A stretch of 40,425 nucleotides of DNA from Ruminococcus sp. (GTDB taxonomy: Bacteria; Bacillota; Clostridia; Oscillospirales; Ruminococcaceae), in assembly GCA_017437285.1 (NCBI GenBank), contig JAFSBM010000088.1, forward strand, positions 1 through 40,425. Reading direction: 5' to 3'. The notes below the pieces were generated by a model. That model saw only the letters and a list, made by a program, of their open reading frames with translations. It searched no databases and was not told where the DNA came from. Below, piece by piece: positions 5,165 to 24,000 of this stretch (within the stretch, counting starts at the first letter, position 1; every line of letters starts with the position of its first letter). Position numbers and translations under genes: made by a program.

Positions 5165-6076
5165 TCAAAATATATAACTACATGTCGTTTTCCATTCACG
5201 AAAAAACTCAGTGAATGTTAAATAACGTTCACCTTTATTAAGACTGACCGCCTTTGTTGCAACTCTATAGCTTTCTTCATTTAATTGCCACTTACTTAAT
5301 GAACAAGGATTAAATTGATTGTTACAATATCTTTGATGTATTTCTTCATCAGTATATTCACCAAAAAACTCAAAAATCAATGCTCCCAAAGTAAAAATAT
5401 TAGTCTGCTCATCAATAGCACAGCCTTCTATATATTCCTCTGGTGCTTTCAGCCTCTTTGTTCCAAACCATTCAATTCCTTTATCATTAATAACTGGAGC
5501 TTTTCTGAAAAAATCAATATCACAAATTGTAGTTACATCTGTTAAAAAGTCGTACATAATACTCCCGTCATAGAAATCAACAGCAACATACCCCTTTTGG
5601 TTTGCATTCTGCAAAAAAGAGAATAAAACTTCTATTGCTTTCAACTTTTTATTAACAGATAACTCTTTAAATTTCTCCTTTGGACTTTTAATATTGGTAT
5701 CTCTTTGGTAAGTTTCAAAGTTCCAATGATCAAATAAGCATTCACCATCAGCCCATTCAAAAACTGCAACATAGAATTGCTTGTAATCGTATGCTTCAAT
5801 AATTTTAATTAAACTTGGATGTGCCAAATCATAATACAGACGAACCGCTTTTTTCAGTATTTTCACAGACTCTTTCGGCGAAACCTCTGCTTCTATTGTA
5901 TTTACTCCTGCGACTTTACAGAAATATTTTCTTTCGGCATCTTCCATTCCAATACAAATACAGCCTGAACCGGTTTCATCTACAACCCAAAACGCTGTAC
6001 CATATTTCTTTAACCAAGTAAAATCATGTAATTCATTAAGTCTAAATTCGATAGAATCAAGTTTGTTAATTATCAT
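5165..6076 (-). CDS. Divergent serine/threonine protein kinase-like protein
   Basis: A 303-aa soluble protein with the layout of a protein kinase fold. YFCKVAG carries the probable ATP-binding Lys. YVAVFEWADGECL looks like the hinge. GYVAVDFYDGSIMYD stands where HRDLKPxN is expected: the catalytic Asp seems kept, while the metal-binding Asn is replaced by Ser. ICDIDFF stands for DFG, and LKAPEEY matches the APE motif. There is no transmembrane segment or PASTA domain, so it is not a PrkC-type receptor kinase. It may be a weak kinase or a pseudokinase. The ATG at 6076 has GGAGGA just upstream on the minus strand. It is monocistronic, with its own terminator and an inverted repeat around its likely promoter. 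The substrate is unknown. Confidence 0.75.
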   Translation of the reverse strand: MIINKLDSIEFRLNELHDFTWLKKYGTAFWVVDETGSGCICIGMEDAERKYFCKVAGVNTIEAEVSPKESVKILKKAVRLYYDLAHPSLIKIIEAYDYKQFYVAVFEWADGECLFDHWNFETYQRDTNIKSPKEKFKELSVNKKLKAIEVLFSFLQNANQKGYVAVDFYDGSIMYDFLTDVTTICDIDFFRKAPVINDKGIEWFGTKRLKAPEEYIEGCAIDEQTNIFTLGALIFEFFGEYTDEEIHQRYCNNQFNPCSLSKWQLNEESYRVATKAVSLNKGERYLTFTEFFREWKTTCSYIF

Positions 6077-6314: not shown

Positions 6315-7556
6315 TTATTTAAATAAATTCAGCAATATCTGTGATACAACAACTACAGAAATAAGGGCAATGGGATAAGTTGCAGCATATGCAGACGCTA
6401 CATTTTCTGTCTTAGCTGTACCGATAAGCGTACCCAAAGCAGGAGTTGAAGTCATACCGCCTGTGATAGAGCCGAGATTGTTCAGCAAGCTCAGTTTCAA
6501 CACATACTTTGCAAAGAGGAAACCAACAATCATAGGAATAACTGTCATAACAACGCCATAGAGGAAGTATACGCCCTTGAAATATGTGACAAAGTTTGCA
6601 CCGCCTGCGATTCCTGCACCAATGAGGAACAGAATAAGTCCGAATTCACGGAAAACTTTGAGAGTTGTATCCTTTGGCATAACCGACATTTTTCCAAATC
6701 TGCCGAAATGACCGAAAATCAATCCCATAAGCAGACAGCCGCCTGTTGTAGTGAGAGAGAAACTGCCGAACTTTATTGAACCAACGAATATACCAACAAT
6801 TGCTGCAAGAGCAAAAGGCATAATTCCGAAATCGTCCATTTCTATAAGCTTGCCCTTGTATTCCTTTTTTGTTCCCTTTGTATCGGCTGTAATGAGCAAT
6901 TCACGCTCCTTAGCCATATCAGCTTTCATAAGCTTTGGCATAATCTGAATGAAAAGCACAACTCCGATTACTCCGAAAAGATATGCAATTCCGTATCCTA
7001 CTGTTACATAATCCTCTAAAACTGCACCATTTACACGGTCTGCAACTGTTGTTTTAGCCGCTGAAAATGCAGGGGTACTTGTCAACGCACCTGCAAGAAG
7101 TCCAACAAGCATTGACGCTGTATTTTCCACAGGTTCTCCCGAAATTTTTGTATCAAGAAGAATACAGCCTGCACAGGTTAATCCGCCTGTGATAATTATT
7201 ACAAGTCCCAGCAATACGTAATTCTTGAAATTTTTCTTGAAATTCCCGAAGAAATTGGGGCCTGCAATAAATCCTACAGATGTTACAAAGAGGATAAGTC
7301 CCATATTTTCTACAACTTTAAGGGCATTTTTTACGTATGACTCCCCTGCAATCATAAGATTTTCGCTTAAATTATCATAGAAGAAACATCCGTAAAGCAG
7401 AGCGATTATGAAAACTCCCGCAGAACCTAAAGATATGCCCTTAATGGTAATTCTTCCCAGTAAATAGCCAACCGCCACAATAAGAAATACGGAAAACACC
7501 AGAAAAGCAACCGATGTTACAGAGATTGAAAAATCGCCTATGGTAATTAAATCCAT
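6315..7556 (-). CDS. AspT/SucE-type (YidE/YbjL duplication) transporter, putative succinate or dicarboxylate exporter
   Basis: A 413-aa integral membrane protein with about ten hydrophobic segments in two repeated halves. Each half ends with the family motif: GALTSTPAFSAAK in the first and GGMTSTPALGTL in the second, with GFIAGPNF and GAGIAGGANF preceding them. This duplication defines the aspartate:alanine exchanger family, which includes the succinate exporter SucE1 of Corynebacterium. Family members usually have about 550 aa with a soluble TrkA_C region between the halves. Here only a short charged loop (KERELLITADTKGTKKEYKGK) is present. It is the last gene of the fumarase/fumarate reductase block, 112 nt after the flavoprotein gene, with its own GGAAG ribosome site. 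That context favours export of succinate or exchange of C4-dicarboxylates, which is inference. Confidence 0.8.
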   Translation of the reverse strand: MDLITIGDFSISVTSVAFLVFSVFLIVAVGYLLGRITIKGISLGSAGVFIIALLYGCFFYDNLSENLMIAGESYVKNALKVVENMGLILFVTSVGFIAGPNFFGNFKKNFKNYVLLGLVIIITGGLTCAGCILLDTKISGEPVENTASMLVGLLAGALTSTPAFSAAKTTVADRVNGAVLEDYVTVGYGIAYLFGVIGVVLFIQIMPKLMKADMAKERELLITADTKGTKKEYKGKLIEMDDFGIMPFALAAIVGIFVGSIKFGSFSLTTTGGCLLMGLIFGHFGRFGKMSVMPKDTTLKVFREFGLILFLIGAGIAGGANFVTYFKGVYFLYGVVMTVIPMIVGFLFAKYVLKLSLLNNLGSITGGMTSTPALGTLIGTAKTENVASAYAATYPIALISVVVVSQILLNLFK

Positions 7557-7618
7557 AGTAAAAACACTTCCTTAGATAAAAAATTGTGCAACTTTACAAA
7601 TTGCCTATTCGCACAAAT

Positions 7619-7650
7619 CGACGGACAGGGATTTCCCTATATGTCCGCCG
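7619..7650 (-). other. Intercistronic hairpin between frdA and the transporter gene
   Basis: CGACGGACA (7619-7627) pairs with TGTCCGCCG (7642-7650), nine pairs of which one is a G-U wobble in RNA. The 14-nt interior contains a further GGGA/TCCC stem. No T-run follows on the minus strand, so it is more likely an mRNA-stability or attenuation structure than a full terminator. Confidence 0.55.
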
Positions 7651-7668
7651 ATTTATAATATTTATAGT

Positions 7669-9270
7669 TTATGATTTACGTGCATACTTTGGAAGCAGCA
7701 TTGGTGAAGCTGTTTCACTTGCTATGCCTGCATTTTCAAGTTCCTTGCTGAACTTTTCAATATGCTCCAGAGTGAGCTTTTCGGGAACTGCTGTTTCCTT
7801 TGCCTTTGCAGCCGCATTTTTTCCTGCATCTCTGCCGAATACGATAACATCAAGGAGAGAGTTACCCATAAGGCGGTTTCTGCCGTGGATACCGCCTGCT
7901 GCCTCGCCTGCGGCATAAAGGTTTTCAACATCAGTTGAACAATCAGCTGAAATATTCAGACCGCCATTCTGATAGTGAAGTGTTGGATAAACGAGAATAG
8001 GCTCTTTGCGGATATCAATGCCGTATTTGCCGAACATACGCATCATTGCAGGGATTCGCTTTTCAATTGTACCCTCGCCGTGCTTATACTCAATCATAGG
8101 TGTGTCAAGCCATACAGCCTTACCAAGTGAAGTTTCAATTCCCTTGTCACGCTCCTGACACTCACGTATAATTGAAGCCGCTGTTACATCACGGGTTTCA
8201 AGAGGATGCATAAATACTTCACCGTCAATATTTACAAGCTTTGCACCGAGAGAACGAACCTTCTCAGTAACAAGCGCACCGAAAATCTGTTCGGGATAAC
8301 CTGTACCTGTGGGGTGATACTGGAGAGTATCAGCATAGAGAAGTCTTGCACCTACACGGTAGCCGAGAATAAGTCCGTCAGCTGTTGCACCGTAGTGGTT
8401 TGATGTGGGGAATCCCTGATAGTGAAGTCGTCCTGCACCGCCTGTTGCAATGATTACTGTCTTTGCACGGGCAACAAGAAGTTCCTTTGTTTCCATATTC
8501 ATAAGAACCGCACCTGCTGCCTTGCCATTTTCGTCAAGGATAATTTCAACAGCCGCTGTAAAATCAATTACGGGAATACCTCTGTTAAGAACTTCATCAC
8601 GGAGTGTACGCATAATTTCTGCACCTGTATAGTCCTTTGCAGCGTGCATACGCTTGCGGGAAGTACCGCCGCCGTGAGTTGTTACCATTGTGCCGTCAGC
8701 TTCCTTGTCAAATTCAACGCCAAGTTTATTGAGCCACTGAATTGCTTCGGGAGCTTTTGTAACAAGATTTTTTACAAGTTCAGGCTTTGCGGCAAAGTGA
8801 CCGCCGCCAAATGCGTCAATATAGTGAATTGCAGGGGAATCATTGGGCTTATCTGCCGCCTGAATTCCGCCCTCTGCCATCATTGTGTTAGCGTCACCGA
8901 TACGAAGCTTTGTGACAATCATAGCCTTTACGCCAGCTTCGTCAGCCTCAATAGCCGCAGATGCACCTGCTCCGCCGCCGCCGATAATAAGCACATCTGT
9001 GTCATAATCGGGAGCATTGAGGTCAACGTCAGCAGCAGAAATTCTGCTCTTGCCCTGTAAAAGCTCTGCAAGCTGTGTAGGAACTTTATCGCCCTTGTTA
9101 ACACCTGCGGAAAGAACTGTAAATTCCTCCTGCTTATAGTCGGGGTGGAAAGTTGCAAGGAGATTATCCTTTTCCTCTGCTGTCATTCTTCTTGGCTCTA
9201 AATCGGCATTTGCAGCTCTTTTTTCAGCTACGATTTTTGCCAGCTCATTGAATTTTTCAATTTTATACAT
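7669..9270 (-). CDS. frdA: Fumarate reductase-type flavoprotein subunit (FrdA/TfrA-like)
   Basis: A 533-aa FAD protein that should reduce fumarate to succinate in the cytoplasm. The Rossmann motif VLIIGGGGAGASAA is at about residues 93-106. Catalytic-type elements follow: HPTG at 319, the RDV arginine at 360, HYQNGG at 432, and GRNRLMGNSLLD from 463. The family histidine that binds FAD covalently (H-T-x-A-x-G-G) is absent; the sequence reads NTMMAEGG near 128-135, so FAD should be bound non-covalently, as in methanogen TfrA and L-aspartate oxidase. About 90 residues precede the FAD domain and match nothing I recognise. GGAGGGG upstream fixes the start. It follows frdB by 12 nt. No membrane anchor (FrdC/FrdD) is nearby. 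L-aspartate oxidase is the main alternative, but nadA and nadC are absent. Confidence 0.83.
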   Translation of the reverse strand: MYKIEKFNELAKIVAEKRAANADLEPRRMTAEEKDNLLATFHPDYKQEEFTVLSAGVNKGDKVPTQLAELLQGKSRISAADVDLNAPDYDTDVLIIGGGGAGASAAIEADEAGVKAMIVTKLRIGDANTMMAEGGIQAADKPNDSPAIHYIDAFGGGHFAAKPELVKNLVTKAPEAIQWLNKLGVEFDKEADGTMVTTHGGGTSRKRMHAAKDYTGAEIMRTLRDEVLNRGIPVIDFTAAVEIILDENGKAAGAVLMNMETKELLVARAKTVIIATGGAGRLHYQGFPTSNHYGATADGLILGYRVGARLLYADTLQYHPTGTGYPEQIFGALVTEKVRSLGAKLVNIDGEVFMHPLETRDVTAASIIRECQERDKGIETSLGKAVWLDTPMIEYKHGEGTIEKRIPAMMRMFGKYGIDIRKEPILVYPTLHYQNGGLNISADCSTDVENLYAAGEAAGGIHGRNRLMGNSLLDVIVFGRDAGKNAAAKAKETAVPEKLTLEHIEKFSKELENAGIASETASPMLLPKYARKS

Positions 9271-9282
9271 ATCCGCCCCTCC

Positions 9283-9957
9283 TTACTTCTCAATCTCTCT
9301 TGTATTATAAAGCTCCTTGATTTCATCAATGGGCTTCTGCATAAGATTTTCGATAAGCTCCTCAAATGTGCCGTCCTTGATTTCCTTTACTCTGTCCTCA
9401 AGATGACCGCAGTCGGGAGCAAGATATTTACCGTTAAGACGGCGTGCAAGCATTGCAACCTGTGGGTGAGAAATTCCCGCAGGACAGCGTGATGAACAAA
9501 CTCCGCACATTACGCAGTCAAAGCTTTCCTCTGCACATTTCTCATACTCGCCACGCTGTGCATATGCGATATACTGCATTACATTAAGTTCCTGAGTGCA
9601 AGCCTTTGTGCAGGCATTACAGCCGATACAAGCGTAAATTTCGGGATAAAGCTGCATCATAATCTGCTCTGTGGGCTTGATTTCCTCAATGTTGTAAATC
9701 TGCTTTACAAGGGGGAAGAAAGGCAGGGTTGCAACATACATTCCCTCCTGAACCTCTGTCTGACAAGCAAGACAAGCATGAAGTTCCTGTTTGCCGTGAA
9801 TTCTGTAAATTGTAGCACAAGCACCGCAGAATCCGTTACGGCAGCCGCAGCCTCTTACAAGGTCATAGCCTGCATATTCCATAGCAGTCATTATAGTAAG
9901 TCCCTCGGGGACAGCATATTTTTTGCCGAAAAGATAGACATTAACCATATTTTCCAT
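9283..9957 (-). CDS. frdB: Fumarate reductase-type iron-sulfur subunit (FrdB/TfrB-like, no CCG domain)
   Basis: A 224-aa iron-sulfur protein. The N-terminal plant-type ferredoxin domain holds GCGCRNGFCGAC and CLAC for one [2Fe-2S] cluster (about residues 32-65). The C-terminal half has CIGCNACTKAC and CVMCGVCSSRCP for two [4Fe-4S] clusters. In SdhB/FrdB one of these would be a [3Fe-4S] site with a different spacing. The layout matches the front half of methanogen TfrB, but TfrB carries a C-terminal CCG (HdrB-like) domain that is missing here and is supplied by the separate HdrB. The start is ATG 9957, with AAGGAGGT 7 nt upstream; longer in-frame reading upstream has no such site. It should pass electrons from the Hdr/Flox proteins to the flavoprotein. 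Confidence 0.85.
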   Translation of the reverse strand: MENMVNVYLFGKKYAVPEGLTIMTAMEYAGYDLVRGCGCRNGFCGACATIYRIHGKQELHACLACQTEVQEGMYVATLPFFPLVKQIYNIEEIKPTEQIMMQLYPEIYACIGCNACTKACTQELNVMQYIAYAQRGEYEKCAEESFDCVMCGVCSSRCPAGISHPQVAMLARRLNGKYLAPDCGHLEDRVKEIKDGTFEELIENLMQKPIDEIKELYNTREIEK

Positions 9958-9970
9958 TGCAATTACCTCC

Positions 9971-10798
9971 TTAATATTCATCGGGAAGCTCGCCCAGTTC
10001 ATCATATCGGAACACGGGACCGTCCTTGCATACATACTTATTGCCGATGTTGCAGCGTCCGCATTTGCCAACTCCACACTTCATACGCAGCTCCATAGTT
10101 GTGTATACCTGAGTTTCAGAAAATCCCAGTTCTTTAAGTCCTGCAAGGGTAAATTTAATCATTATGGGAGGGCCGCACACAAGTACAGTCTTATTTGTGG
10201 AGGGCATAAGTTCCTTGACATAGTTTGGAACAAAGCCAACATGACCGTCCCAGCCCTCCTGCGGATTGTCAATAGTGAGGTTTACCTGAATATTGTCATC
10301 AGCCATCCACTCGTCGATTATCTCCTGATAATCCACCAAATCATCCTTGGAACGTGAACCGTAGACAATCTGCACATCACCATAATTTTCTCTGTTGTCA
10401 CGGACATAATTTATTACAGAGCGAAGTGGTGCAAGACCAATTCCGCCTGCAACAAAAAGCAAATCCTTGCCCTTTAATTCGGTTTCAACAGGAAAATAAT
10501 TTCCGTAAGGTCCTCTTATTGTAATCTGCTGACCTACGTCCATTGCGTGAAGCCATTCTGTAAGACAGCCGCATTTCTTTATGCTGAACTCCATAAACTC
10601 CTTATTTGTGGGAGATGAAGTGATAGAGAACATAGCCTCGCCAACTCCGGGGATTGAAAGCATTGCACACTGACCCGGCATATGCTCAAAAACCTTGCCG
10701 CCCTCAAGGGCATTTACTCTGAAAGTCTTTACATCGGGAGTATCCTGACGGACATCAGTAACAATGCCCACAAGGGGTATTAATGTATCATTATTCAT
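9971..10798 (-). CDS. floxA: FloxA: FAD/NAD(P)-binding oxidoreductase subunit with [2Fe-2S] cluster
   Basis: A 275-aa ferredoxin-reductase-like subunit expected to oxidise NADH and pass electrons to FloxB/FloxC. The N-terminal FAD-binding barrel includes MPGQCAML and FSITSSP (about residues 40-63). The nucleotide-binding domain has VAGGIGLAPLRS (117-127) and VCGPP. The C-terminal PyrK-like loop CGVGKCGRC...C begins at 241 and should bind a [2Fe-2S] cluster. Length and domain order match sulfhydrogenase gamma and anaerobic sulfite reductase B relatives, among which FloxA is defined by its neighbours FloxBCD and HdrABC. It starts directly at the floxB stop (1-nt overlap, TAATG), so translation is probably coupled, and lies 13 nt ahead of frdB. 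Confidence 0.87.
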   Translation of the reverse strand: MNNDTLIPLVGIVTDVRQDTPDVKTFRVNALEGGKVFEHMPGQCAMLSIPGVGEAMFSITSSPTNKEFMEFSIKKCGCLTEWLHAMDVGQQITIRGPYGNYFPVETELKGKDLLFVAGGIGLAPLRSVINYVRDNRENYGDVQIVYGSRSKDDLVDYQEIIDEWMADDNIQVNLTIDNPQEGWDGHVGFVPNYVKELMPSTNKTVLVCGPPIMIKFTLAGLKELGFSETQVYTTMELRMKCGVGKCGRCNIGNKYVCKDGPVFRYDELGELPDEY

Positions 10799-11817
10799 TA
10801 CTTATCCTCCAATGCTTTCATTACCTTGACAATATTAAGTGATACGGGACACTTTGAAAGACATCTTCCGCAGCCTACACAGCCGAATTCTCCCTCGTGA
10901 TTTGAGGGGTGATATACAAGCTTGTGCATAAAACGCTGTCTGAATCGTTCAAGCTGTGATGTTCTTGGATTTCCGTGTGCCATTTGTGTAAAATCGGAAT
11001 ACATACAGGAATCCCAGCAGCGGAAACGCTTTATGCCGTTTCCTGTATCATAGTCACGTATATCGTAGCATTGACAGGTAGGGCATACAAATGTGCAGGT
11101 ACCGCAGCCGATACAAGCCTCTGAAAGCTCTGCCCATTTCTCGGAATTGAAATGCTCCATAAGTCTTTCGCCGCCGAATGAATCGGTAGTGAGATTTGCA
11201 AGGGGCAGACGAGTCATAATTTCTCTTGCCTTTGCCTGAACCTCGGAAAGCTTTGTTACATCGCCCTCCTCCAGCATATCGGAAATTGAAGCCATAAACG
11301 CCTTTCCCTTATCGGTAAAGGGAACAAAGAAATAGCTTTCACCGTCAAAATATACGGAAGCATCTCCACCGGGAACAGTAGGATTTATGCCGAAAGTTGT
11401 GCAGAAGCAGGTTTCTTCGGGACGAGTACAAGCCATTGTCACGATTGTACCGTGTTCACGGCGGTTTTTATAGAACGAATCAACAGGCTCGGTTAAAAAT
11501 ACGCTGTCCAGAATTTCAAAGCTCTTTGCATCGCAGGCACGCACGCCGAAAACTACGAAATCCTCGTTTTCCTTACGGATATCCTTAACCTCGATAGTCT
11601 TTCCGCTTAACTTGAATTCCGCAAGATTTTCCGTCTGTGGGAAGAAGAAATCCTTTGCACTTCTCACGGTATTAAGTGCCTTGCTCAATGTCATTCCGCT
11701 TTCGTATTTCTTGTATTCAGCCTGCTTATCCTCACGGTCAACGGGGATATAGAGTGTCTTCTGTGAAGCAATTTTATCGAAAAGCTCATTTATTTTTTCA
11801 GCTGAAATTTTAAGCAT
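10798..11817 (-). CDS. floxB: FloxB: 4Fe-4S dicluster electron-transfer subunit
   Basis: A 339-aa iron-sulfur protein related to anaerobic sulfite reductase A and sulfhydrogenase beta subunits. The N-terminal domain includes VFGVRACDAKSF and CTRPEETCFC. The C-terminal half has two cluster motifs, CIGCGTCTFVCPTCQC (about residue 234) and CVGCGRCLSKCP (about 313). It should relay electrons between FloxA and the Hdr proteins. It shares one base with the floxC stop upstream and one with the floxA start downstream, so three consecutive genes are translationally coupled. This tight order is what is known for flox operons in other anaerobes. Confidence 0.85.
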   Translation of the reverse strand: MLKISAEKINELFDKIASQKTLYIPVDREDKQAEYKKYESGMTLSKALNTVRSAKDFFFPQTENLAEFKLSGKTIEVKDIRKENEDFVVFGVRACDAKSFEILDSVFLTEPVDSFYKNRREHGTIVTMACTRPEETCFCTTFGINPTVPGGDASVYFDGESYFFVPFTDKGKAFMASISDMLEEGDVTKLSEVQAKAREIMTRLPLANLTTDSFGGERLMEHFNSEKWAELSEACIGCGTCTFVCPTCQCYDIRDYDTGNGIKRFRCWDSCMYSDFTQMAHGNPRTSQLERFRQRFMHKLVYHPSNHEGEFGCVGCGRCLSKCPVSLNIVKVMKALEDK

Positions 11818-12788
11818 TACTCAACACCCCTTTCGTGAACGATTGAGGGTTCACAGTCATTTACATCATAATCGGTAAGGGGACATTTTGTAGTTCTGTC
11901 CGCACCTGCCTGAAATTCGCCGTAAAAGCTGTTTATATCCTTGATGAATTTTCTGTTGAGCAGGTGTAGAGGAATATTCACGGGGCAAACTCTTGTACAT
12001 TCGCCGCAGTCAGTACATCTTCCTGCAACGTGGAATGCACGGATAATATGATACATCTGCTCCTCAAAGCTGTCAGCAGCTGCTTTCTGTGCAATACCCG
12101 ACTTTGGATTGTCAAATACGCAGTTTTCACAAGTACAAGCAGGGCATACATTACGGCAGGCATTGCAGCGGATACACTTTGAAAGCTCTCCCTGCCAGAA
12201 ATCATAACGCTCCTGTGCTGTCATATTTTCAAGCTTTTCAACCATTTCAAAACGCTTGGAATTGAGAATTGTACCCTCATCGCCTATAAGCTCGTCATAT
12301 TCAACGTGGAGTTTGCTCTTGCAGTTAGAGCATTTTTCGCTTACAGCCTCGTAATACGGCATAGTTTCTGTGCCGTAGAGAGTTTCGATTTTAAGAGTAA
12401 ATCCGTCCTTGGAAACTCCTGTAATTCCGTTTATGCCCTTTGCCTTTATCTTTTCAACGTCAAGCTTCGGACCGCCCGGGATACCGATAACGTACACGTT
12501 TTCACGGATAATTCTATGCTCGTTCAGAAGCTGATTGAAGCTGTATGTATCGCAGGGTTTGAGGAATGCAAGAATTTTTCCGTCCTTGCGTGATTCTTTT
12601 ATGAGATATTTTGACAGATTAGCCTGTGTGAAATCGTCACAGACAAAATCTCTTTCAAGCTCCTCTGCTGATTCGAATACAGCAGGTGAGGAATCGTATG
12701 CAAATTCGCCCTTTTTCCAGCCCATCACACGATTTACCGTGCCGTCGGCAAGAAGCTCCTTTGCTCTTTTTATCATTGTTTCCTGCAT
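11817..12788 (-). CDS. floxC: FloxC: FrhB-like 4Fe-4S subunit
   Basis: A 323-aa soluble iron-sulfur protein. It has an N-terminal FrhB/coenzyme F420 hydrogenase beta-like region (FLKPCDTYSFNQLL, VIGIPGGPKLD), a Cys pair CSNCKS, and two ferredoxin-type motifs, CIRCNACRNVCPACTCENC (about residue 208) and CTDCGECTRVCP (about 260). It is the third electron carrier of the Flox module. The ATG at 12788 has GGAGGA 8 nt upstream; a second ATG at 12776 overlaps the floxD stop as ATGA and is an alternative start. It overlaps floxD by 16 nt at the first start. Confidence 0.83.
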   Translation of the reverse strand: MQETMIKRAKELLADGTVNRVMGWKKGEFAYDSSPAVFESAEELERDFVCDDFTQANLSKYLIKESRKDGKILAFLKPCDTYSFNQLLNEHRIIRENVYVIGIPGGPKLDVEKIKAKGINGITGVSKDGFTLKIETLYGTETMPYYEAVSEKCSNCKSKLHVEYDELIGDEGTILNSKRFEMVEKLENMTAQERYDFWQGELSKCIRCNACRNVCPACTCENCVFDNPKSGIAQKAAADSFEEQMYHIIRAFHVAGRCTDCGECTRVCPVNIPLHLLNRKFIKDINSFYGEFQAGADRTTKCPLTDYDVNDCEPSIVHERGVE

Positions 12789-13213
12789 CTCAGATCCTCC
12801 AATCTGCGGTTAGGGCCAAGCTTTCTTACATCTTCGGTAAACTGATTCATTACAGCTGCAAACTTTGCTCCCTCTGCGGCAGATACCCATTCAAGACGGG
12901 TTCTGTTACGCTCAATTCCGAGGAAGTCAAGCATACTGTAGAGAAGTGTAATTCTTCTTCTTGTGAAATAGTTTCCCGATGTGTAATGGCAATCTCCGGG
13001 GTGACAGCCGCATATAATTACGCCGTCTGCTCCCCTCTGGAATGCACGGAGAATAAAAATCGGATTAACTCTGCATGAGCAGGGTACACGGATTATCTTT
13101 ACATTTGCAGGGTAATTAAGTCTGTTTGTGCCTGACAAGTCTGCTCCTGCATATGAACACCAGTTACAGCAGAAAGCAACGATAACAGGCTCAAAATTTT
13201 CATTTACTTGCAT
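12773..13213 (-). CDS. floxD: FloxD: MvhD-like [2Fe-2S] adaptor between Flox and Hdr
   Basis: A 146-aa protein of the MvhD family, which in methanogens links the electron-donating module to HdrA. The invariant cysteines are in CCNWCSYAGAD (residues 14-24), VPCSCRVNP (about 43-51) and CGCHPGDCHY. The start is ATG 13213, chosen from GGAGGT 9 nt upstream; it overlaps the 3' end of hdrA by 10 nt. In some organisms mvhD is fused to hdrA, but here it is separate. Its presence between hdrA and floxC argues that the two modules form a single complex. Confidence 0.88.
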   Translation of the reverse strand: MQVNENFEPVIVAFCCNWCSYAGADLSGTNRLNYPANVKIIRVPCSCRVNPIFILRAFQRGADGVIICGCHPGDCHYTSGNYFTRRRITLLYSMLDFLGIERNRTRLEWVSAAEGAKFAAVMNQFTEDVRKLGPNRRLEDLRCRKQ

Positions 13214-15195
13214 ATTGCGTCTACCTCCGACATAATCTGGCTGTTTGAGAAGCCGTTGAGATCCATTGCTCCCGACGGACAAGCAACTGTACAAGCGCCG
13301 CAGCCCTGACATACAGCAGGATTAACGCTTGCCACACGACGGATAGCCGTTGTGCGGTCAGGCATTCTGAATTCCTTGTTCTCGTATGTAATTGCACCGT
13401 ATGGACATACCTTTTCACAGGAAGAACAGCCGTTGCACATCATTTCATCGCTGTGGGCAACACATGGGTTGCAGGTGATGCTGTTCTTGCAGAGAAGTCC
13501 GATAGCCTTTGCAGCTGCGGCACTTGCCTGTGCAACTGTTTCGGGAATATCCTTTGGTCCCTGACAAGCTCCTGAAAGGAAAATACCTGCTGTTGCGGAT
13601 TCCACAGGGCGAAGCTTGGGGTGGGCTTCGGTGAAGAAATCGTTTGTATCCATTTGTGTTGTAAGCATTGTTGCAAGCGGACGAGCCGTTTTATCAGGCT
13701 CAATTGCAGTTGCAAGAACAACCATATCAGCGTCAATGTGAAGCTGTTCATTTGTAAGCAAATCAGATGCCTGAACGTCAATTTTTCCGTCAGACTTTGG
13801 ATTTACCTTGCCAACCATACCCTTGATGTAGTGAACTCCGTACTGCTCAACGGCACGGCGGTAGAACTCGTCAAAGTTCTTACCCGGAGTACGCACATCA
13901 ATATAGAATACATAAACCTCTGTATCGGGATATTTCTCACGGATAAGCATTGCGTGTTTTGCGGTATACATACAGCAGATTTTGGAGCAGTATGGCTTAC
14001 CCTTTTCATCGTCGCAGCGTGAACCTACACATTGTACGAATACGATTGTGTGAGGGTGCTTTTTATCCGAGGGGCGAAGAAGTGTTCCGCCGTTAGGACC
14101 TGCGGCATTCATAAGTCTTTCAAGTTCAAGTGATGTAACAACATCGGGACACCAGCTGTATGCGAATTCGTCATACTTATCGGGCTTAATCGGATTAAAT
14201 CCCGTAGCAACTACGATTGCACCGTATTTCTGCTCTACAAAGCGGTCAGTCTGCTTGTAGTCAATAGCACCAACGGAGCATACCTTTGAACAAATTCCGC
14301 ACTTGCCGTTTTTCAGCATAAGGCAGTAATTGGGGTCAATTGATGCTACCTTTGGTACAGCCTGTGCAAAGGGAATATAAACAGCCGTTCTGTTGTCAAG
14401 TCCCATATTGAACTCATTGGGTACTTTCTTCATAGGACATTTCTCGGTACAAAGTCCGCAGCCTGTACACTTTGTTTCGTCAACATAACGTGCCTTTTTC
14501 TTGATTGTAACTGTGAAATTACCCACAAATCCCTTAACATCGCTGATTTCGCTGAATGAGTGGATTGTGATTTTTTCATTCTGTGCAGCCTCAACCATTT
14601 TCGGGGTAAGAATACAAGCAGCACAGTCAAGAGTTGGGAAAGTCTTGTCAATCTGTGCCATTTTTCCGCCGATTGTAGGCTCTTTTTCAACAATATCAAC
14701 TTCAAAGCCTGCCTCTGCAATATCAAGGGCAGTCTGAATACCTGCAATTCCGCCGCCGATAACCAATGCACGTTTTACAACAGGGCTTTCACCTGCGGTA
14801 AGAGGTGTATTGAGATGAACCTTGGCAATTGCAGCTTTACCGAGAACAATAGCCTTATCGGTTGCAGATGCAATTTCCTTGTGAATCCATGAACACTGCT
14901 CACGGATATTTGCAATTTCCACAAGATATGGGTTAAGACCTGCTGAAGCAGCAGCCTTTCTGAATGTATTCTCGTGCATACGAGGTGAACAGGAGCAGAC
15001 AACAACACCTGTGAGGTTATGCTCCTTGATTGATGCCTTTACTAAATCCTGTCCCGATTCGGAGCACATATACTGATAATCCTGAGATATAACAACTCCA
15101 GGTTCATTTGCAAGAGCTGCCGCAACTGCCTTTACATCAACGGTAGCTGCTATATTTGTTCCGCAATGGCAGACAAAAACACCTATTCTCTGCAT
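13204..15195 (-). CDS. hdrA: HdrA: FAD-containing heterodisulfide reductase subunit A (bifurcation site)
   Basis: A 663-aa iron-sulfur flavoprotein, normal length for HdrA. It begins with the N-terminal Cys domain (VCHCGTN, CSCSPRMHE) and continues with the FAD Rossmann motif VIGGGIAGIQ (about residues 145-154), TLDCAACILTPKM, an inserted ferredoxin (CTGCGLCTEKCP, CGICSKVC) and a second FAD-domain part (CVGSRCDDEKGK). The C-terminal ferredoxin has CNGCSSCEKVCP and CQGCGACTVACP. In Hdr complexes this flavin splits electron pairs between a high-potential acceptor and ferredoxin. The start has GGAGGAG upstream. It lies 12 nt after hdrC. Whether it bifurcates here cannot be read from the sequence, but all expected cluster motifs look present. 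Confidence 0.93.
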   Translation of the reverse strand: MQRIGVFVCHCGTNIAATVDVKAVAAALANEPGVVISQDYQYMCSESGQDLVKASIKEHNLTGVVVCSCSPRMHENTFRKAAASAGLNPYLVEIANIREQCSWIHKEIASATDKAIVLGKAAIAKVHLNTPLTAGESPVVKRALVIGGGIAGIQTALDIAEAGFEVDIVEKEPTIGGKMAQIDKTFPTLDCAACILTPKMVEAAQNEKITIHSFSEISDVKGFVGNFTVTIKKKARYVDETKCTGCGLCTEKCPMKKVPNEFNMGLDNRTAVYIPFAQAVPKVASIDPNYCLMLKNGKCGICSKVCSVGAIDYKQTDRFVEQKYGAIVVATGFNPIKPDKYDEFAYSWCPDVVTSLELERLMNAAGPNGGTLLRPSDKKHPHTIVFVQCVGSRCDDEKGKPYCSKICCMYTAKHAMLIREKYPDTEVYVFYIDVRTPGKNFDEFYRRAVEQYGVHYIKGMVGKVNPKSDGKIDVQASDLLTNEQLHIDADMVVLATAIEPDKTARPLATMLTTQMDTNDFFTEAHPKLRPVESATAGIFLSGACQGPKDIPETVAQASAAAAKAIGLLCKNSITCNPCVAHSDEMMCNGCSSCEKVCPYGAITYENKEFRMPDRTTAIRRVASVNPAVCQGCGACTVACPSGAMDLNGFSNSQIMSEVDAICK

Positions 15196-15207
15196 ATCTG
15201 CTCCTCC

Positions 15208-15591
15208 TTACTTCGTATATTTTCTGAATGCTGTGACAATAGCCTGCTGGGGCATATCTTCATCAAGCATATCTGGTATCATATCGGGGATAAGTCGGTT
15301 ATTCCCCTGCTTTCTTACAGCTGTAAGACGTACAGCCTCAACTACCTTTGCAGGCTCAACACCTCTTGGGCATCTCTCCACACAGGCAAAGCAGGTAAGG
15401 CATTTATAAAGTGACTCTGAATTGAGAAGCGGCTCTATATTGCCTTTTTCAACCATATATACAAACTGGTGGGGATGATATTCCATTTCATTGAAAGAGG
15501 GGCAAGCAGCTGTACATTTGCCGCATCTCATACATTTGCGGACATCAACTCCGCTTGTAATATCAATCCAGTCCTTATCGTACTTATTCAT
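15208..15591 (-). CDS. hdrC: HdrC: 4Fe-4S heterodisulfide reductase subunit C
   Basis: A 127-aa two-cluster ferredoxin-like protein with CMRCGKCTAACPSF and CLTCFACVERCPRG, each a full [4Fe-4S] motif. It carries electrons from HdrA to HdrB. Its short length and position between hdrB and hdrA are typical. The start ATG 15591 follows AAGGAGG, and the gene overlaps the hdrB end by 8 nt, which suggests coupled translation. Confidence 0.93.
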   Translation of the reverse strand: MNKYDKDWIDITSGVDVRKCMRCGKCTAACPSFNEMEYHPHQFVYMVEKGNIEPLLNSESLYKCLTCFACVERCPRGVEPAKVVEAVRLTAVRKQGNNRLIPDMIPDMLDEDMPQQAIVTAFRKYTK

Positions 15592-16378
15592 TGCCAGCCT
15601 CCTTCAGACCGAGAGCCTCTGCAAGAAGCTCTGTGAAATAGTACACAGGCATATCATTGCCTGAATTTTTCTTCAAATTGTAAAGGCAGAGAGGGCAGGC
15701 AGTTATAATCATTTCTGCACCCATTTCCTCTGCGGAAGCCATAACGGCTCCGCTTCTTCTCTCCGCCTGTGCTTTGTCCTCCAACGCAATATATCCGCCG
15801 CAGCACTCGTTTCTCTGAGAGTAAATAACGGGAGTTCCGCCGATTGCTCTGATGAAATTCTCCATAATAACTGGATTTTCGGGATTATCCATAGCAAGTG
15901 CCTTTGAGGGACGGAGAAGCAGACAGCCGTAATATGCGGCAATTTTTCTGCCTGTAAATGGATTAACAACCTTTTCTTTAAGCTTGTCAAATCCCACTAC
16001 ATCACGTAAAAGCTCCAAATAATGATATACAGCGGTTTCGCCCTTGTACGGGTCATCAAGTCCGAGATAACGCTGTACCTTGACAGCCATTGCCTCGCTG
16101 TGGGATATATCATAATTTGTCTGCTTTATTACATTGTGACAGGCTGAACATACTGTAACAAGTCCTGCTGTTTCCTTTGCCGCCATAAGCGTTCTTACAG
16201 AGGAAAGTTTTGTAGCAGCCTCATTTGTAGCTGTAGTATACGCACCGCCGCAGCATTGCCAGTTTTCAGGCTCAACAAGACTGATACCGAGAGCTTCTGC
16301 GGAAATTCTTGCGTATCTGTCCAGTTCCTTTGCCTTGGTTCTCAATGTACATCCGGGATAATATGTAAATGTTTCCAT
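15584..16378 (-). CDS. hdrB: HdrB: heterodisulfide reductase subunit B with two CCG domains
   Basis: A 264-aa protein with two CCG domains: CCGGAYTTATNEAATK with later CSACHN, and NECCGGYIALEDKA with CPLC. In HdrB these bind two unusual non-cubane [4Fe-4S] clusters that cleave CoM-S-S-CoB in methanogens. This bacterium should lack that heterodisulfide. HdrB here may reduce another disulfide or may simply pass electrons to the FrdB-like subunit, which lacks the CCG domain found in TfrB. The start is ATG 16378, after AAAGGA; upstream in-frame codons to 16435 overlap the fumC stop region and have no ribosome site. It lies 53 nt after fumC. Confidence 0.92.
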   Translation of the reverse strand: METFTYYPGCTLRTKAKELDRYARISAEALGISLVEPENWQCCGGAYTTATNEAATKLSSVRTLMAAKETAGLVTVCSACHNVIKQTNYDISHSEAMAVKVQRYLGLDDPYKGETAVYHYLELLRDVVGFDKLKEKVVNPFTGRKIAAYYGCLLLRPSKALAMDNPENPVIMENFIRAIGGTPVIYSQRNECCGGYIALEDKAQAERRSGAVMASAEEMGAEMIITACPLCLYNLKKNSGNDMPVYYFTELLAEALGLKEAGNE

Positions 16379-16431
16379 AGCATTTTCCTTTCTGATTAAT
16401 ACCTTATAGCTAAAAGCTAAAGGCTGATAAA

Positions 16432-17808
16432 TCAAACCATCTGCTCGGGGTGGAATACCTCGTCAAATTTTTCTGCTGTAAGGAATCCCAGTTCAACACA
16501 GGCTTCTTTAAGGGAGATATTGTCCTTAAATGCCTTTTTCGCAGTCTTAGCGGCATTTTCATAGCCGATATAGGGATTGAGTGCCGTTACAAGCATAAGT
16601 GAATTGTGGAGATTATGGTGCATTTTCTCCTTATTTGCCTTTATTCCAACTGCACAGTTATCGTTGAATGACATAATTGATTCAGCAAGAAGTCTTGCAG
16701 ACTGTAGGAAATTATATGCACATACGGGCATAAATACGTTCAGTTCAAAATTACCTTGTGATGCAGCCATACCTACAGCTACATCATTACCCATAACCTG
16801 AACTGCAACCATTGTCGCCTGCTCGCATTGTGTAGGATTTACCTTGCCTGGCATAATTGATGAACCGGGTTCATTTTCGGGAATGAAAATTTCTCCAAGA
16901 CCGTCACGGGGACCTGATGCAAGCCAGCGTACATCGTTGGCAATTTTCATCATATCAGCTGCAAGAGCCTTTAATGCACCGTGGGCAAATACAATTTCAT
17001 CCTTTGAAGTGAGGGAGTGGAATTTATTTGGAGCAGTAATAAATTTCTTTCCTGTAATGTCGCTTATAGCCTCTGCGGATTTCTCAGCAAATCCCTCGGG
17101 GGCATTAAGTCCTGTGCCTACAGCTGTACCGCCTAAAGCAAGTTCTTTCAGTTCCTCACAGGAAGAAATAATCATCTTTCTGTCCTTTTCGAGGGAAGAA
17201 CGCCAGCCGCTTATCTCCTGTGAAAATTTAATGGGAGTTGCGTCCTGCAAATGTGTACGTCCGCTTTTTACAATTCCCTCATTTTCTGCTTCAAGGCGGA
17301 TAAAGGTTTCAATCAATGTATCAACAGCGGGGATAACCTTATCCTCAATGGCAATTACAGCGGCAATGTGCATAGCTGTGGGGAATGTATCGTTGGAGGA
17401 CTGGCTCATATTTATATCATCATTGGGATGAAGAAGCTTGCTTCCTGCAATTTCATTTCCTCGGTTAGCTATAACCTCATTTGCGTTCATATTGGACTGC
17501 GTACCGCTTCCCGTCTGCCATACAACAAGGGGGAAATGGTCGTTAAGCTCACCGCTTATAACCTCATCGCAAGCCTGTGTAATAGCCGCAAGCTTTTCAG
17601 CTGTCATTTTTTCGGGCTTCAGCTGATTATTTGCAATAGCTGCTGCCTTTTTCAAAATGCCGAAAGCATGAGTTATCTCACGGGGCATTGTTTCAATTCC
17701 AACTCCGATAGGGAAATTCTGATGACTTCTCTCAGTCTGTGCTGCCCAGTACTTGTCAGCAGGCACTTTTACCTCACCCATAGAGTCGTGTTCAATACGA
17801 TAATCCAT
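16432..17808 (-). CDS. fumC: Fumarate hydratase class II
   Basis: A 458-aa, iron-free class II fumarase that interconverts malate and fumarate. The family signature GSSIMPGKVNPTQCEQ is clear, as are SGRTHLQDATP and TGSGTQSNMNANEV. It starts at ATG 17808, preceded by AAAGGTGGT; the longer reading to 17832 has no ribosome site. It is the first gene of the hdr-flox-frd run, so its product fumarate is the substrate of the reductase encoded downstream. A weak Rex-box match and a 7-bp hairpin lie in its upstream region. Confidence 0.96.
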   Translation of the reverse strand: MDYRIEHDSMGEVKVPADKYWAAQTERSHQNFPIGVGIETMPREITHAFGILKKAAAIANNQLKPEKMTAEKLAAITQACDEVISGELNDHFPLVVWQTGSGTQSNMNANEVIANRGNEIAGSKLLHPNDDINMSQSSNDTFPTAMHIAAVIAIEDKVIPAVDTLIETFIRLEAENEGIVKSGRTHLQDATPIKFSQEISGWRSSLEKDRKMIISSCEELKELALGGTAVGTGLNAPEGFAEKSAEAISDITGKKFITAPNKFHSLTSKDEIVFAHGALKALAADMMKIANDVRWLASGPRDGLGEIFIPENEPGSSIMPGKVNPTQCEQATMVAVQVMGNDVAVGMAASQGNFELNVFMPVCAYNFLQSARLLAESIMSFNDNCAVGIKANKEKMHHNLHNSLMLVTALNPYIGYENAAKTAKKAFKDNISLKEACVELGFLTAEKFDEVFHPEQMV

Positions 17809-17837
17809 TGTAATTACCACCTTTACAAGCATTTTAC

Positions 17838-17856
17838 ATCTCTGCTTTACAGAGAT
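17838..17856. other. Hairpin in the fumC leader
   Basis: ATCTCTG (17838-17844) and CAGAGAT (17850-17856) form a perfect 7-bp inverted repeat with a 5-nt loop, about 30 nt before the fumC start. No T-run follows on the minus strand, so it is not a terminator. Confidence 0.5.
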
Positions 17857-17873
17857 AGTGATTTTTTTAACAA
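17856..17873 (-). promoter_or_regulatory. Degenerate Rex-box candidate upstream of fumC
   Basis: On the minus strand the 18-mer TTGTTAAAAAAATCACTA has a perfect TTGTTAA half and a weaker ATCACTA half at the right spacing for a Rex operator (TTGTxAAxxxxTTxACAA). It lies between rex and fumC. The match is partial, so the call is tentative. Confidence 0.35.
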
Positions 17874-17916: not shown

Positions 17917-18567
17917 TCAGTCGTTTCCGCAAGTTTCACTTTCAGAATTAAGACGATAGGAAAGTGTTGCAAGGCTGTCACCAAGGTGAACATTTTCCAC
18001 CGAAACATCAGAATGATTTATACGCAGGTCATAGTGTGTGAAATTCCAGAATGCACGGATTCCCTTCGCTATAAGCCTGTCAACCTCTTTTGATGCCGCC
18101 TCTTTCGGTATACAGAGAATTGCACAGCGTGGATTGTGTTCTTCACAGATTTTATCAAGCTCATCCATATCTGAAATCTCCACATCGCCTATCTTATCGC
18201 CGATAATTGCAGGGTTTGTGTCGAATATTCCCACAAGCTTGAAGCCCTTGCTCTCGAAATTAATATGTGACGCAATTGCTCTGCCGAGATTTCCCGCACC
18301 GAGAAGAATAGTCGGTGTAATCTTGTCAAGTCCGAGAATTCTGCCGATTTCAATTTTAAGAGCCGCAACATTATAGCCGTATCCCTGCTGACCGAATTCG
18401 CCAAAGCAGTTGAAATCCTGACGTATCTGTGAAGCGGTAAGTCCCATTTTTTCCGCAAGCTCTCTGGAGGAAATGCGGACATATCCGTTGGTTTCCAGTT
18501 CGCCTAAAAAGCGGTAATATCTTGGGAGTCGCCTTATAACTGAATTTGATATTGTATTTTTTGACAT
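17917..18567 (-). CDS. rex: Redox-sensing transcriptional repressor Rex
   Basis: A 216-aa repressor that binds DNA when NADH is low and releases it when NADH rises. The N-terminal winged helix includes RLPRYYRFLGEL and the hallmark RQDFNCFGEFGQQGYGY. The Rossmann domain has LLGAGNLGRAIA for NAD(H). The start ATG 18567 is preceded by AAGGG; a longer reading to 18588 has no ribosome site. It lies between icd and fumC in the same direction, inside the block it probably controls. A good Rex-box match lies at the promoter upstream of acn. Confidence 0.96.
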   Translation of the reverse strand: MSKNTISNSVIRRLPRYYRFLGELETNGYVRISSRELAEKMGLTASQIRQDFNCFGEFGQQGYGYNVAALKIEIGRILGLDKITPTILLGAGNLGRAIASHINFESKGFKLVGIFDTNPAIIGDKIGDVEISDMDELDKICEEHNPRCAILCIPKEAASKEVDRLIAKGIRAFWNFTHYDLRINHSDVSVENVHLGDSLATLSYRLNSESETCGND

Positions 18568-18595
18568 ATTTCTGCCCTTCTTAATCATCTTTAGC

Positions 18596-19845: not shown

Positions 19846-19879
19846 TGGTTTTTACCTCCATTTTTTAATGTCCGCATAC

Positions 19880-20596: not shown

Positions 20597-20612
20597 AGGA
20601 ACAGCCTCCATT

Positions 20613-20951: not shown

Positions 20952-20961
20952 ATATCCCCCT

Positions 20962-21342: not shown

Positions 21343-21362
21343 ATCCTCACCTGTTGATTATG

Positions 21363-21728: not shown

Positions 21729-21744
21729 AAATAATCCCCTTTTA

Positions 21745-23946: not shown

Positions 23947-24000
23947 TATATTTTACACTATTTCACGAACTTTGTCAAGAAATAAACAATGTAAAATATA
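23947..24000 (-). promoter_or_regulatory. acn promoter region with an 11-bp inverted repeat
   Basis: On the minus strand TTGACA (23978-23973) and TAAAAT (23955-23950) are exactly 17 nt apart, a near-consensus sigma-A promoter. TATATTTTACA (23947-23957) and TGTAAAATATA (23990-24000) are perfect inverted arms 32 nt apart that cover the -10 box and the region upstream of -35. Confidence 0.85.
23972..23989. promoter_or_regulatory. Rex-box candidate overlapping the acn -35 box
   Basis: TTGTCAAGAAATAAACAA matches 12 of the 14 fixed positions of the clostridial Rex operator TTGTTAAxxxxTTAACAA. It covers the whole -35 hexamer of the acn promoter. Rex is encoded 5.4 kb downstream in the same block, so NADH-relieved repression is likely. 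Confidence 0.65.

What the first reader, a model, noticed from the sequence alone, without database searches (positions are those of the whole stretch)
6315..17808. Candidate soluble, NADH-dependent and possibly electron-bifurcating fumarate reductase: FumC-HdrBCA-FloxDCBA-FrdBA-exporter
Eleven consecutive co-directional genes, many overlapping by 1-16 nt, encode a fumarase, a full HdrABC, a full FloxABCD, a fumarate reductase-type flavoprotein and iron-sulfur subunit, and an AspT/SucE-type carrier. No membrane anchor subunit is present. Known: Flox-Hdr oxidises NADH with a low-potential and a high-potential acceptor in other anaerobes, and methanogen TfrAB reduces fumarate in the cytoplasm. 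Inference: here fumarate is the high-potential acceptor, and the energy of NADH oxidation by fumarate is saved as reduced ferredoxin. That would be an anchor-free route to succinate that saves energy without a quinone. I do not know of a characterised example.
Basis: partly seen in the sequence, partly recalled or inferred. Interest (0 to 1): 0.92.

Follow-up and report, generated by a model that had tools for sequence, protein, structure and literature searches.

The report
Soluble fumarate reductase wired to NADH
Rumen Ruminococcus and related gut bacteria carry a conserved run of ten genes for proteins without membrane segments that are predicted to turn fumarate into succinate with electrons from NADH and would save part of the energy as reduced ferredoxin; the same idea was published in 2019-2020 for another bacterium, and we found no test of it.

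Summary
In detail: eleven same-strand genes (FumC, HdrBCA, FloxDCBA, FrdBA, AspT-type carrier) sit at 6315-17832 of a Ruminococcus genome, beside Rex. All ten enzyme genes occur in this order in 65 of the 80 closest loci kept; 14 others are cut by contig ends, one lacks fumC. FrdA keeps the fumarate-site residues but has Asn for the flavin-linking His (118 of 118). FrdB has a second [4Fe-4S] motif instead of [3Fe-4S] (115 of 115). HdrB resembles SdhE, the ten-cysteine subunit of E-type fumarate reductases, so it probably replaces the 'missing anchor' as wire from HdrA to FrdB. The genome has Rnf, FeFe hydrogenase and GTP-PEPCK, but no Sdh cytochrome and no menaquinone marker above cut-off.

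Best reading: an NADH-driven, probably ferredoxin-reducing fumarate reductase. The idea is not new: it was proposed for the 'succinate operon' of Pseudoclostridium thermosuccinogenes. Added here: spread among gut Oscillospirales, resemblance to SdhABE, and modularity (18 of 39 distant FrdA loci show no Hdr/Flox nearby, yet the full module occurs on three FrdA branches, in different gene orders). Bifurcation is untested.

The parts
16432..17832 (-). fumC, class II fumarate hydratase (start probably 17808)
   Evidence: TIGR00979 707.8 bits, over its cut-off of 664.75; PF00206 + PF10415
15584..16435 (-). hdrB, two CCG domains with ten cysteines (start probably 16378); proposed wire from HdrC to FrdB
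   Evidence: PF02754; best NCBIfam model SdhE of methylmenaquinol:fumarate reductase 131.6 bits, then HdrB 126.3, both below cut-off; methanogen HdrB structures; each of the ten Cys kept in 71-73 of the 72-73 ungapped rows of 82
15208..15591 (-). hdrC, two [4Fe-4S] motifs
   Evidence: eight Cys in 76 of 76 rows
13204..15195 (-). hdrA, FAD and Fe-S subunit, predicted site of bifurcation
   Evidence: residues 3-660 match HdrA of 5odc, E 1.9e-210; 22 cysteines of its cluster motifs and K413 invariant in 82 of 82 rows
12773..13312 (-). floxD/mvhD-type subunit (start probably 13213)
   Evidence: PF02662 185 bits
11817..12788 (-). floxC, 4Fe-4S protein
   Evidence: PF13183 and others
10798..11817 (-). 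floxB, 4Fe-4S protein related to sulfhydrogenase beta / AsrA
   Evidence: PF17179; 9nez_B E 1.9e-42
9971..10798 (-). floxA, FAD/NAD(P)H-binding subunit; predicted NADH entry
   Evidence: PF00970, PF00175, PF10418; 9nez_C E 1.9e-56
9283..9957 (-). frdB, [2Fe-2S] plus two [4Fe-4S] motifs
   Evidence: twelve cluster cysteines in 115 of 115 rows (of 119 copies fetched), including one where E. coli FrdB has Val at its [3Fe-4S] site
7669..9270 (-). frdA, fumarate reductase-type flavoprotein with an N-terminal extension of about 88 residues and no Succ_DH_flav_C match
   Evidence: PF00890 247 bits; substrate residues conserved and covalent-FAD His replaced by Asn in 118 of 118 rows (of 119 copies fetched)
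6315..7556 (-). AspT/YidE/YbjL-type carrier, predicted dicarboxylate (succinate) exporter
   Evidence: PF06826 201 bits; TIGR01625 145 bits over its cut-off of 71.95
17917..18588 (-). rex, redox-sensing repressor, likely regulator
   Evidence: PF06971 + PF02629; Rex of at least 60% identity upstream of fumC in 30 of 60 loci with room for it
17856..17873 (-). weak Rex-like operator before fumC
   Evidence: 11 of 14 consensus positions, only equal to the 95th percentile of shuffles in the window; 18 of 28 related loci exceed theirs; consensus recalled

Best explanation
The ten genes fumC-hdrBCA-floxDCBA-frdBA encode a fumarase and the subunits of a soluble protein set that is predicted to work as one NADH-dependent fumarate reductase, which would split electrons from NADH so that one half reduces fumarate to succinate and the other half reduces ferredoxin. 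Proposed route: NADH gives a hydride to FloxA; FloxB, FloxC and FloxD carry electrons to the flavin of HdrA; the high-potential electron goes HdrC - HdrB - FrdB - FrdA to fumarate, and the low-potential electron leaves through HdrA's ferredoxin-like domains. Expected net reaction: 2 NADH + fumarate + 2 Fd(ox) -> 2 NAD+ + succinate + 2 Fd(red), about -33 to -49 kJ/mol at standard potentials. HdrB would stand where SdhE stands in E-type fumarate reductases, which is why no membrane anchor is needed. GTP-PEPCK and FumC would feed the pathway, the AspT-type carrier would export succinate, and Rnf and FeFe hydrogenases would reoxidise ferredoxin. Shown: the genes, motifs and their conservation. Inferred: complex formation, direction, electron route and bifurcation.
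For: All ten genes in order in 65 of 80 close loci, 14 of the rest cut by contig ends. In 40 genomes (own plus 39 relatives) an FrdA ortholog (E below 1e-100) and HdrA are both present in 22, both absent in 15, discordant in 3: G003 (320 contigs) has HdrA about 4 kb from a contig end, so that FrdA would fall off it; G005 (310 contigs) and G016 (220 contigs) have FrdA at or near a contig start and no HdrA in the assembly. FrdA keeps H232, T244, E245, R287, H355 and R390 of E. coli FrdA in 118 of 118 rows (one Ser at T244) and lacks the Glu of L-aspartate oxidase (numbers recalled). The covalent-flavin His is Asn in 118 of 118; FrdB has a second [4Fe-4S] motif in 115 of 115. PMC2680327 (passages) gives the same two traits for SdhABE of Wolinella, with a ten-cysteine SdhE related to heterodisulfide reductase; HdrB's best NCBIfam model is that SdhE, by 5 bits. 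HdrA matches methanogen HdrA nearly end to end. The full Hdr-Flox set sits with FrdBA on three separate FrdA branches in three gene orders. Context: GTP-PEPCK, complete rnfCDGEAB, FeFe hydrogenase in 24 of 24 genomes, Sdh cytochrome in 0 of 24, MqnA/D-type menaquinone genes in 0 of 24. In P. thermosuccinogenes the operon with the same block order rises about 4-fold under CO2 limitation (not significant for every subunit), and added H2 was reported to nearly abolish succinate.
Against: No enzyme was assayed. FrdBA occurs without Hdr/Flox nearby in 18 of 39 distant loci, so it can probably take electrons from other partners. Hdr-type genes alone are not sufficient evidence for bifurcation (PMC5861303, passage). 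In gnotobiotic sheep, fumarate reductase/succinate dehydrogenase genes of two ruminococci were not highly transcribed ('data not shown'), and that paper lists acetate, formate and H2 as ruminococcal products (PMC8092306, passage); this flavoprotein often has only a generic name (18 of the 20 named entries among the 120 listed) and may have been missed. R. flavefaciens makes less succinate when a methanogen keeps H2 low (Latham and Wolin as cited in PMC7174568), not what ferredoxin release alone would predict. RnfC was not found in G002, G004, G006 and G014, which have FrdA. FloxA's preference for NADH over NADPH was not tested; its closest solved relative is a sulfhydrogenase 1 subunit that NCBIfam names NADPH-dependent.
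Confidence: 0.66

Rival explanations
1. A soluble NADH:fumarate reductase without bifurcation: electrons run from FloxA through HdrA to HdrCB and FrdBA, HdrA serving only as a wire.
For: [quoted passage not shown] only its reference line seen). NADH to fumarate is strongly downhill without coupling.
Against: A full-length HdrA with its cluster cysteines, those of the C-terminal ferredoxin-like domain included, is kept in 82 of 82 rows, which a plain wire would not need.
Confidence: 0.17
2. HdrABC-Flox reduces a disulfide (a thiol carrier or protein) and FrdBA oxidises the thiols with fumarate, so the two are linked by a diffusible thiol, as in methanogen thiol:fumarate reductase.
For: FrdA's best NCBIfam model is TfrA (353.5 bits, cut-off 718 not met); HdrB keeps both non-cubane cluster motifs.
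Against: TfrB carries its own fused CCG domain (recalled; part of the TfrB model matches HdrB); FrdB here has no PF02754 match, so the CCG sites lie in HdrB. Four distant loci have HdrCB directly beside FrdBA with no HdrA hit nearby.
Confidence: 0.07
3. The complex runs in the oxidative direction in vivo (succinate to fumarate, with reduced ferredoxin, to NAD+), or serves biosynthesis only.
For: Aconitase and isocitrate dehydrogenase lie just upstream.
Against: The covalent-flavin His is lost in 118 of 118 rows; such flavin favours fumarate reduction over succinate oxidation (recalled from E. coli mutants; PMC2680327 mentions yeast SQR mutants in a passage that was cut off). FumC, GTP-PEPCK and a carrier fit the reductive branch.
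Confidence: 0.05
4. FrdBA is an L-aspartate oxidase or reduces another enoate (urocanate, acrylate and the like), not fumarate.
For: The FAD_binding_2 fold is shared; nadB is the second NCBIfam model (287.7 bits).
Against: The Glu of L-aspartate oxidase is Gly or Ala in 118 of 118 rows, while the genome's separate paralog beside a QRPTase gene keeps it; the fumarate residues are intact; fumarase sits in the operon and beside a distant FrdBA copy.
Confidence: 0.03

Closest known systems
'Succinate operon' of Pseudoclostridium thermosuccinogenes (Koendjbiharie et al., PMC7282089, passages; preprint 10.20944/preprints201912.0288.v1, title only)
   Same: Fumarate hydratase, Flx-Hdr (seven locus tags), fumarate reductase (two) and a possible succinate transporter, in this block order; the same bifurcation hypothesis; GTP-PEPCK.
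   Different: A thermophile of another lineage (family recalled).
FlxABCD-HdrABC of Desulfovibrio vulgaris (Ramos et al. 2015; reference lines and mentions)
   Same: The seven-subunit NADH dehydrogenase/heterodisulfide reductase-type module.
   Different: There ferredoxin and disulfides are the proposed acceptors; here FrdBA is added.
8-Methylmenaquinol:fumarate reductase SdhABE of Wolinella succinogenes (E-type; PMC2680327, passages)
   Same: Predicted non-covalent FAD, second [4Fe-4S] in the Fe-S subunit, ten-cysteine SdhE/HdrB-like subunit.
   Different: SdhABE is membrane-associated and uses methylmenaquinol (name of the model); here HdrB belongs to HdrABC-Flox and no menaquinone marker passes its cut-off in the window's genome.
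Methanogen thiol:fumarate reductase TfrAB (Heim 1998, reference line)
   Same: CCG-type clusters linked to fumarate reduction; TfrA is the best NCBIfam model of FrdA.
   Different: CCG domain fused in TfrB, CoM/CoB thiols as donor (recalled); no Flox.
Soluble NADH-dependent fumarate reductase of Hydrogenobacter thermophilus (Miura 2008, reference line)
   Same: Soluble, NADH-linked.
   Different: Five subunits with scattered genes (recalled); sequences not compared.

Membership tests
FlxABCD-HdrABC module | All seven subunits with their cofactor motifs | tested here: met
FlxABCD-HdrABC module | Bifurcation of NADH electrons to ferredoxin | not testable with these tools
   needs assay
Fumarate reductase flavoprotein | Substrate-binding and catalytic residues (H232, T244, E245, R287, H355, R390 of E. 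coli FrdA; list and numbering recalled) | tested here: met
   118 of 118 rows, one Ser at T244
Quinol:fumarate reductase (QFR) | Covalent FAD through His44 | tested here: not met
   Asn in 118 of 118 rows
Quinol:fumarate reductase (QFR) | [3Fe-4S] site in FrdB | tested here: not met
   the extra Cys is present in 115 of 115 rows
Quinol:fumarate reductase (QFR) | Membrane cytochrome/anchor | tested here: not met
   none in the operon; PF01127 in 0 of 24 genomes, 7 of 14 controls positive; PF02300/PF02313 anchors not searched
E-type fumarate reductase (SdhABE/MFR) | Second [4Fe-4S] in the Fe-S subunit and a ten-cysteine SdhE/HdrB-like subunit | tested here: met
   SdhE model 131.6 bits, below its cut-off of 500, so resemblance rather than membership by model
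E-type fumarate reductase (SdhABE/MFR) | Missing His for covalent FAD (trait of the Wolinella and Campylobacter enzymes) | tested here: met
   paper passage
E-type fumarate reductase (SdhABE/MFR) | Membrane association | tested here: not met
   no hydrophobic segment in FrdA, FrdB or HdrB; amphipathic helices not tested
E-type fumarate reductase (SdhABE/MFR) | Menaquinol-type donor | tested here: inconclusive
   menD over cut-off in 1 of 24 genomes, not in the window's; MqnA/D-type family in 0 of 24; the donor itself needs an assay
Thiol:fumarate reductase TfrAB | TfrB with fused CCG domain (recalled) | tested here: not met
   FrdB has no PF02754 match; TfrA cut-off not met
L-aspartate oxidase NadB | Glu121 for the amino group (recalled) | tested here: not met
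   Gly in 116, Ala in 2 of 118 rows
P. thermosuccinogenes succinate operon | Block order fumarase - Flx-Hdr - fumarate reductase - carrier | tested here: met
   paper passages,
P. thermosuccinogenes succinate operon | Orthology by sequence | not tested
Hydrogenobacter soluble fumarate reductase | Subunit homology | not tested
   paper not held

The most novel reading that the evidence does not exclude
An electron-bifurcating E-type fumarate reductase: a portable FrdBA core takes HdrB in the place of SdhE and so plugs into HdrA-Flox, making succinate formation a ferredoxin-charging step without quinone or membrane; clostridia have assembled this union up to three times, and it is the succinate-forming enzyme of Ruminococcus flavefaciens and many gut Oscillospirales.
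Probability: 0.5. Interest if true: 0.76.

Novelty: new member of a known kind. Interest (0 to 1): 0.52.

Why it matters
Succinate from fibre-degrading ruminococci feeds propionate production, and I found no settled enzyme for the fumarate step in them. If the complex charges ferredoxin, succinate formation would yield extra energy through Rnf or extra H2 through hydrogenase, which changes rumen hydrogen budgets. Of the 20 named entries among the 120 best FrdA homologs listed, 18 bear generic names ('FAD-binding protein', 'FAD-dependent oxidoreductase') and 2 are named succinate dehydrogenase/fumarate reductase; it stays below the cut-off of every one of the 25 NCBIfam models shown, so surveys by such models could overlook it. 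The modular FrdBA core is also a natural experiment in swapping electron donors on one enzyme.

Tried and rejected
The AlphaFold2 model of FrdA (24 near relatives, mean pLDDT 65.4) was too weak, above all around the active site, to interpret the N-terminal extension, so no fold search was run; an alignment for FrdB was made but the second job was not used. Rex site: only suggestive; the window's own site does not beat shuffles. The first residue count had 3 gapped rows of 118 for FrdA, and the first tree left out L113, L114 and L139, because of my extraction script; one search repaired this and changed no conclusion. Counts rest on 118 (FrdA) and 115 (FrdB) of 119 copies fetched; L090 (FrdA) and L089, L106, L140 and L143 (FrdB) fell under 85% coverage or had no hit. 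The 9-10 gapped rows in the HdrB count come from the unrepaired extraction. ATP-type PEPCK gave no match, GTP-type did. RnfC is in 18 of 24 genomes (own, 14 of the genus, 9 of the order), not in G002, G003, G004, G006, G014 and G031. MenD is over its cut-off only in G002; G012 has 180 of the 244 bits needed, so not every relative need be quinone-free. HdrA is not specific to Frd: 127 of 398 phylum genomes carry it, 35 of 39 with FrdA and 92 of 359 without (Fisher test, not corrected for kinship). Listings of paper searches showed no experimental test of this complex; they cover open-licence papers only, and I saw the top 5-30 rows of each.

Full report
WHAT IS THERE. The window lies in a 4.1 Mb genome (G000, contig C67) whose nearest named relatives are Ruminococcus sp. 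and R. flavefaciens, many from ruminant guts. Eleven minus-strand genes run fumC-hdrB-hdrC-hdrA-floxD-floxC-floxB-floxA-frdB-frdA-carrier, with rex directly upstream and isocitrate dehydrogenase, a TraX-like gene and aconitase beyond. None of the ten enzyme subunits has a hydrophobic segment.

CONSERVATION. All ten genes are hit in order in 65, in 62 of them with at least 85% of each protein; in 14 the block starts at base 1-3 of a contig end; L084 lacks fumC. The carrier lies within 700 bp downstream in 57 of 70, Rex of at least 60% identity upstream in 30 of 60 loci with room. In 40 genomes (own plus 39 relatives) FrdA ortholog and HdrA are both present in 22 and both absent in 15; the 3 others (G003, G005, G016; 320, 310 and 220 contigs) have the one gene at or near a contig end.

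THE CATALYTIC CORE. Against E. coli FrdA, SdhA and NadB, all six substrate residues are conserved in 118 of 118 rows apart from one Thr to Ser, while the His that binds FAD covalently is Asn in all 118 (residue list and numbers recalled). The residue specific to L-aspartate oxidase is absent, and the genome has a separate NadB-like paralog that keeps it, beside a QRPTase gene. FrdB carries [2Fe-2S] and two complete [4Fe-4S] motifs in 115 of 115 rows; where E. coli has Val at its [3Fe-4S] site, these have Cys. Passages of PMC2680327 give these two traits for SdhABE of Wolinella, with a ten-cysteine SdhE related to heterodisulfide reductase; the second [4Fe-4S] is called characteristic of E-type enzymes, the non-covalent flavin is predicted for the Wolinella and Campylobacter ones. 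HdrB of the window has the ten cysteines and scores slightly higher with the SdhE model (131.6 bits) than with HdrB models (126.3), all below cut-off. I therefore read FrdBA + HdrB as an E-type-like fumarate reductase whose SdhE is at the same time the HdrB of HdrABC-Flox. That would explain the missing anchor. This is inference from motifs.

THE INPUT SIDE. HdrA matches the HdrA of the solved methanogen complexes over residues 3-660, with 22 cluster-motif cysteines and the lysine aligned to residue 409 of 5odc invariant in 82 of 82 rows. FloxA and FloxB resemble sulfhydrogenase gamma and beta subunits; FloxD is MvhD-like. With potentials of +33 mV for fumarate (recalled) and -320 and -420 mV for NADH and ferredoxin (PMC5861303), 2 NADH + fumarate + 2 Fd gives -49 kJ/mol, or -33 with ferredoxin at -500 mV, so bifurcation is affordable.

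MODULARITY. Of 398 phylum genomes, 39 (own included) have a FrdA homolog at E up to 1e-80. I fetched all 39 distant copies (50-66% identity, 38 genomes). FrdB is directly upstream in 37; of the other two, L143 is at a contig end and L140 shows none. Partners: full HdrABC-FloxABCD in 5; HdrABC, then a gap of about 3 kb or more, then MvhD in 9, with 2 more whose contig ends inside that gap (a giant HdrA-like protein of 1070 and 1489 aa was read there in L119 and L144; the other nine were not read); HdrCB alone in 4; contig end in 1; no Hdr or Flox in 18, three of which (L115, L117, L129) had only 2-5 kb upstream. In 13 of the 17 genomes behind these 18 loci an HdrA is encoded elsewhere, so unlinked pairing is not excluded. 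Among the 18 are copies near NapC/NirT-type cytochromes (L133), a b-type cytochrome (L149), pyruvate carboxylase (L112), malic enzyme (L111) and class I fumarase (L117). A maximum-likelihood tree of 53 rows (window, 10 of the 80 close ones, 39 distant, 3 E. coli outgroups) places the full module on three separate branches (3 label changes, 3-3 across bootstraps), with three gene orders: the window's; HdrCBA-FloxDCBA-FrdBA without a fumC hit (L146); and FrdBA-HdrBCA-FloxDCBA (L123, L130, L132, L134; followed to floxA; a fumC of 39-40% identity precedes L123 and L132 only). Three changes may be one gain and two losses; either way the association survived rearrangement, which argues for function.

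PHYSIOLOGY. The genome encodes GTP-PEPCK and a complete Rnf. In 24 genomes (own, 14 of the genus, 9 of the order) FeFe hydrogenase is in 24, Sdh cytochrome in 0, MqnA/D-type menaquinone genes in 0 with 4 of 14 controls positive, menD over cut-off in 1, not the window's. R. flavefaciens is cited as a succinate producer whose succinate falls in methanogen co-culture (PMC7174568 and PMC4649033, passages). That H2 effect is opposite in sign to the one reported for P. thermosuccinogenes and does not by itself favour bifurcation. In gnotobiotic sheep the ruminococci showed no high transcription of annotated fumarate reductases.

PRIOR ART. The decisive finding is in PMC7282089 (passages): the 'succinate operon' of P. 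[quoted passage not shown] The listings showed no experimental test. The claim 'no known example' must become 'no biochemically tested example found'.

VERDICT. A real, strongly conserved operon; very likely a soluble fumarate reductase (about 0.9), probably NADH-driven and electron-bifurcating (0.66). Not a new kind, but a new and widespread member with an SdhABE-like signature and a modular history.

Noticed in passing
L119 7932-11144 (also L144): In L119 and L144 FrdBA lies downstream of HdrA, a 1070 or 1489 aa protein with HdrA-like parts and (by tblastn) MvhD; seven more distant loci have the same HdrABC-gap-MvhD-FrdBA spacing and two are cut inside the gap: another electron-input module for the same core.
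   Followed up: partly
L133 7376-9716 (L139 looks alike by ORF layout, not scanned): FrdBA downstream of NapC/NirT-type multihaem cytochromes and an FMN_bind/4Fe-4S protein, with one 160 aa ORF between, suggesting a membrane-quinol route to the same core.
   Followed up: partly
L167-L169 (G146, G052, G069): HdrA copies with an in-frame TGA exactly at the position of Cys194 of the window's HdrA (3 of 3 checked; many more rows show one TGA): likely selenocysteine forms; the window has Cys.
   Followed up: partly
upstream of fumC in loci L038-L065: A Rex-like palindrome TTGTTAnnnnnnTATCAA is the best site in 13 of 28 loci, about 80-126 bp before fumC.
   Followed up: partly
window 23972-23989: A better Rex-like site (12 of 14 positions, shuffle 95th percentile 11) before aconitase, hinting at shared control of both TCA branches.
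   Followed up: no
window 18634-23903: Aconitase, TraX-like and isocitrate dehydrogenase genes upstream of rex: oxidative and reductive TCA branches side by side.
   Followed up: no
window 5165-6076: ORF with weak protein-kinase similarity (PF00069, 26.2 bits, cut-off 31.7) after the operon.
   Followed up: no
L123, L132: A class II fumarase of only 39-40% identity precedes the rearranged frdBA-hdrBCA-floxDCBA cluster, so fumarase seems to have been recruited separately.
   Followed up: partly
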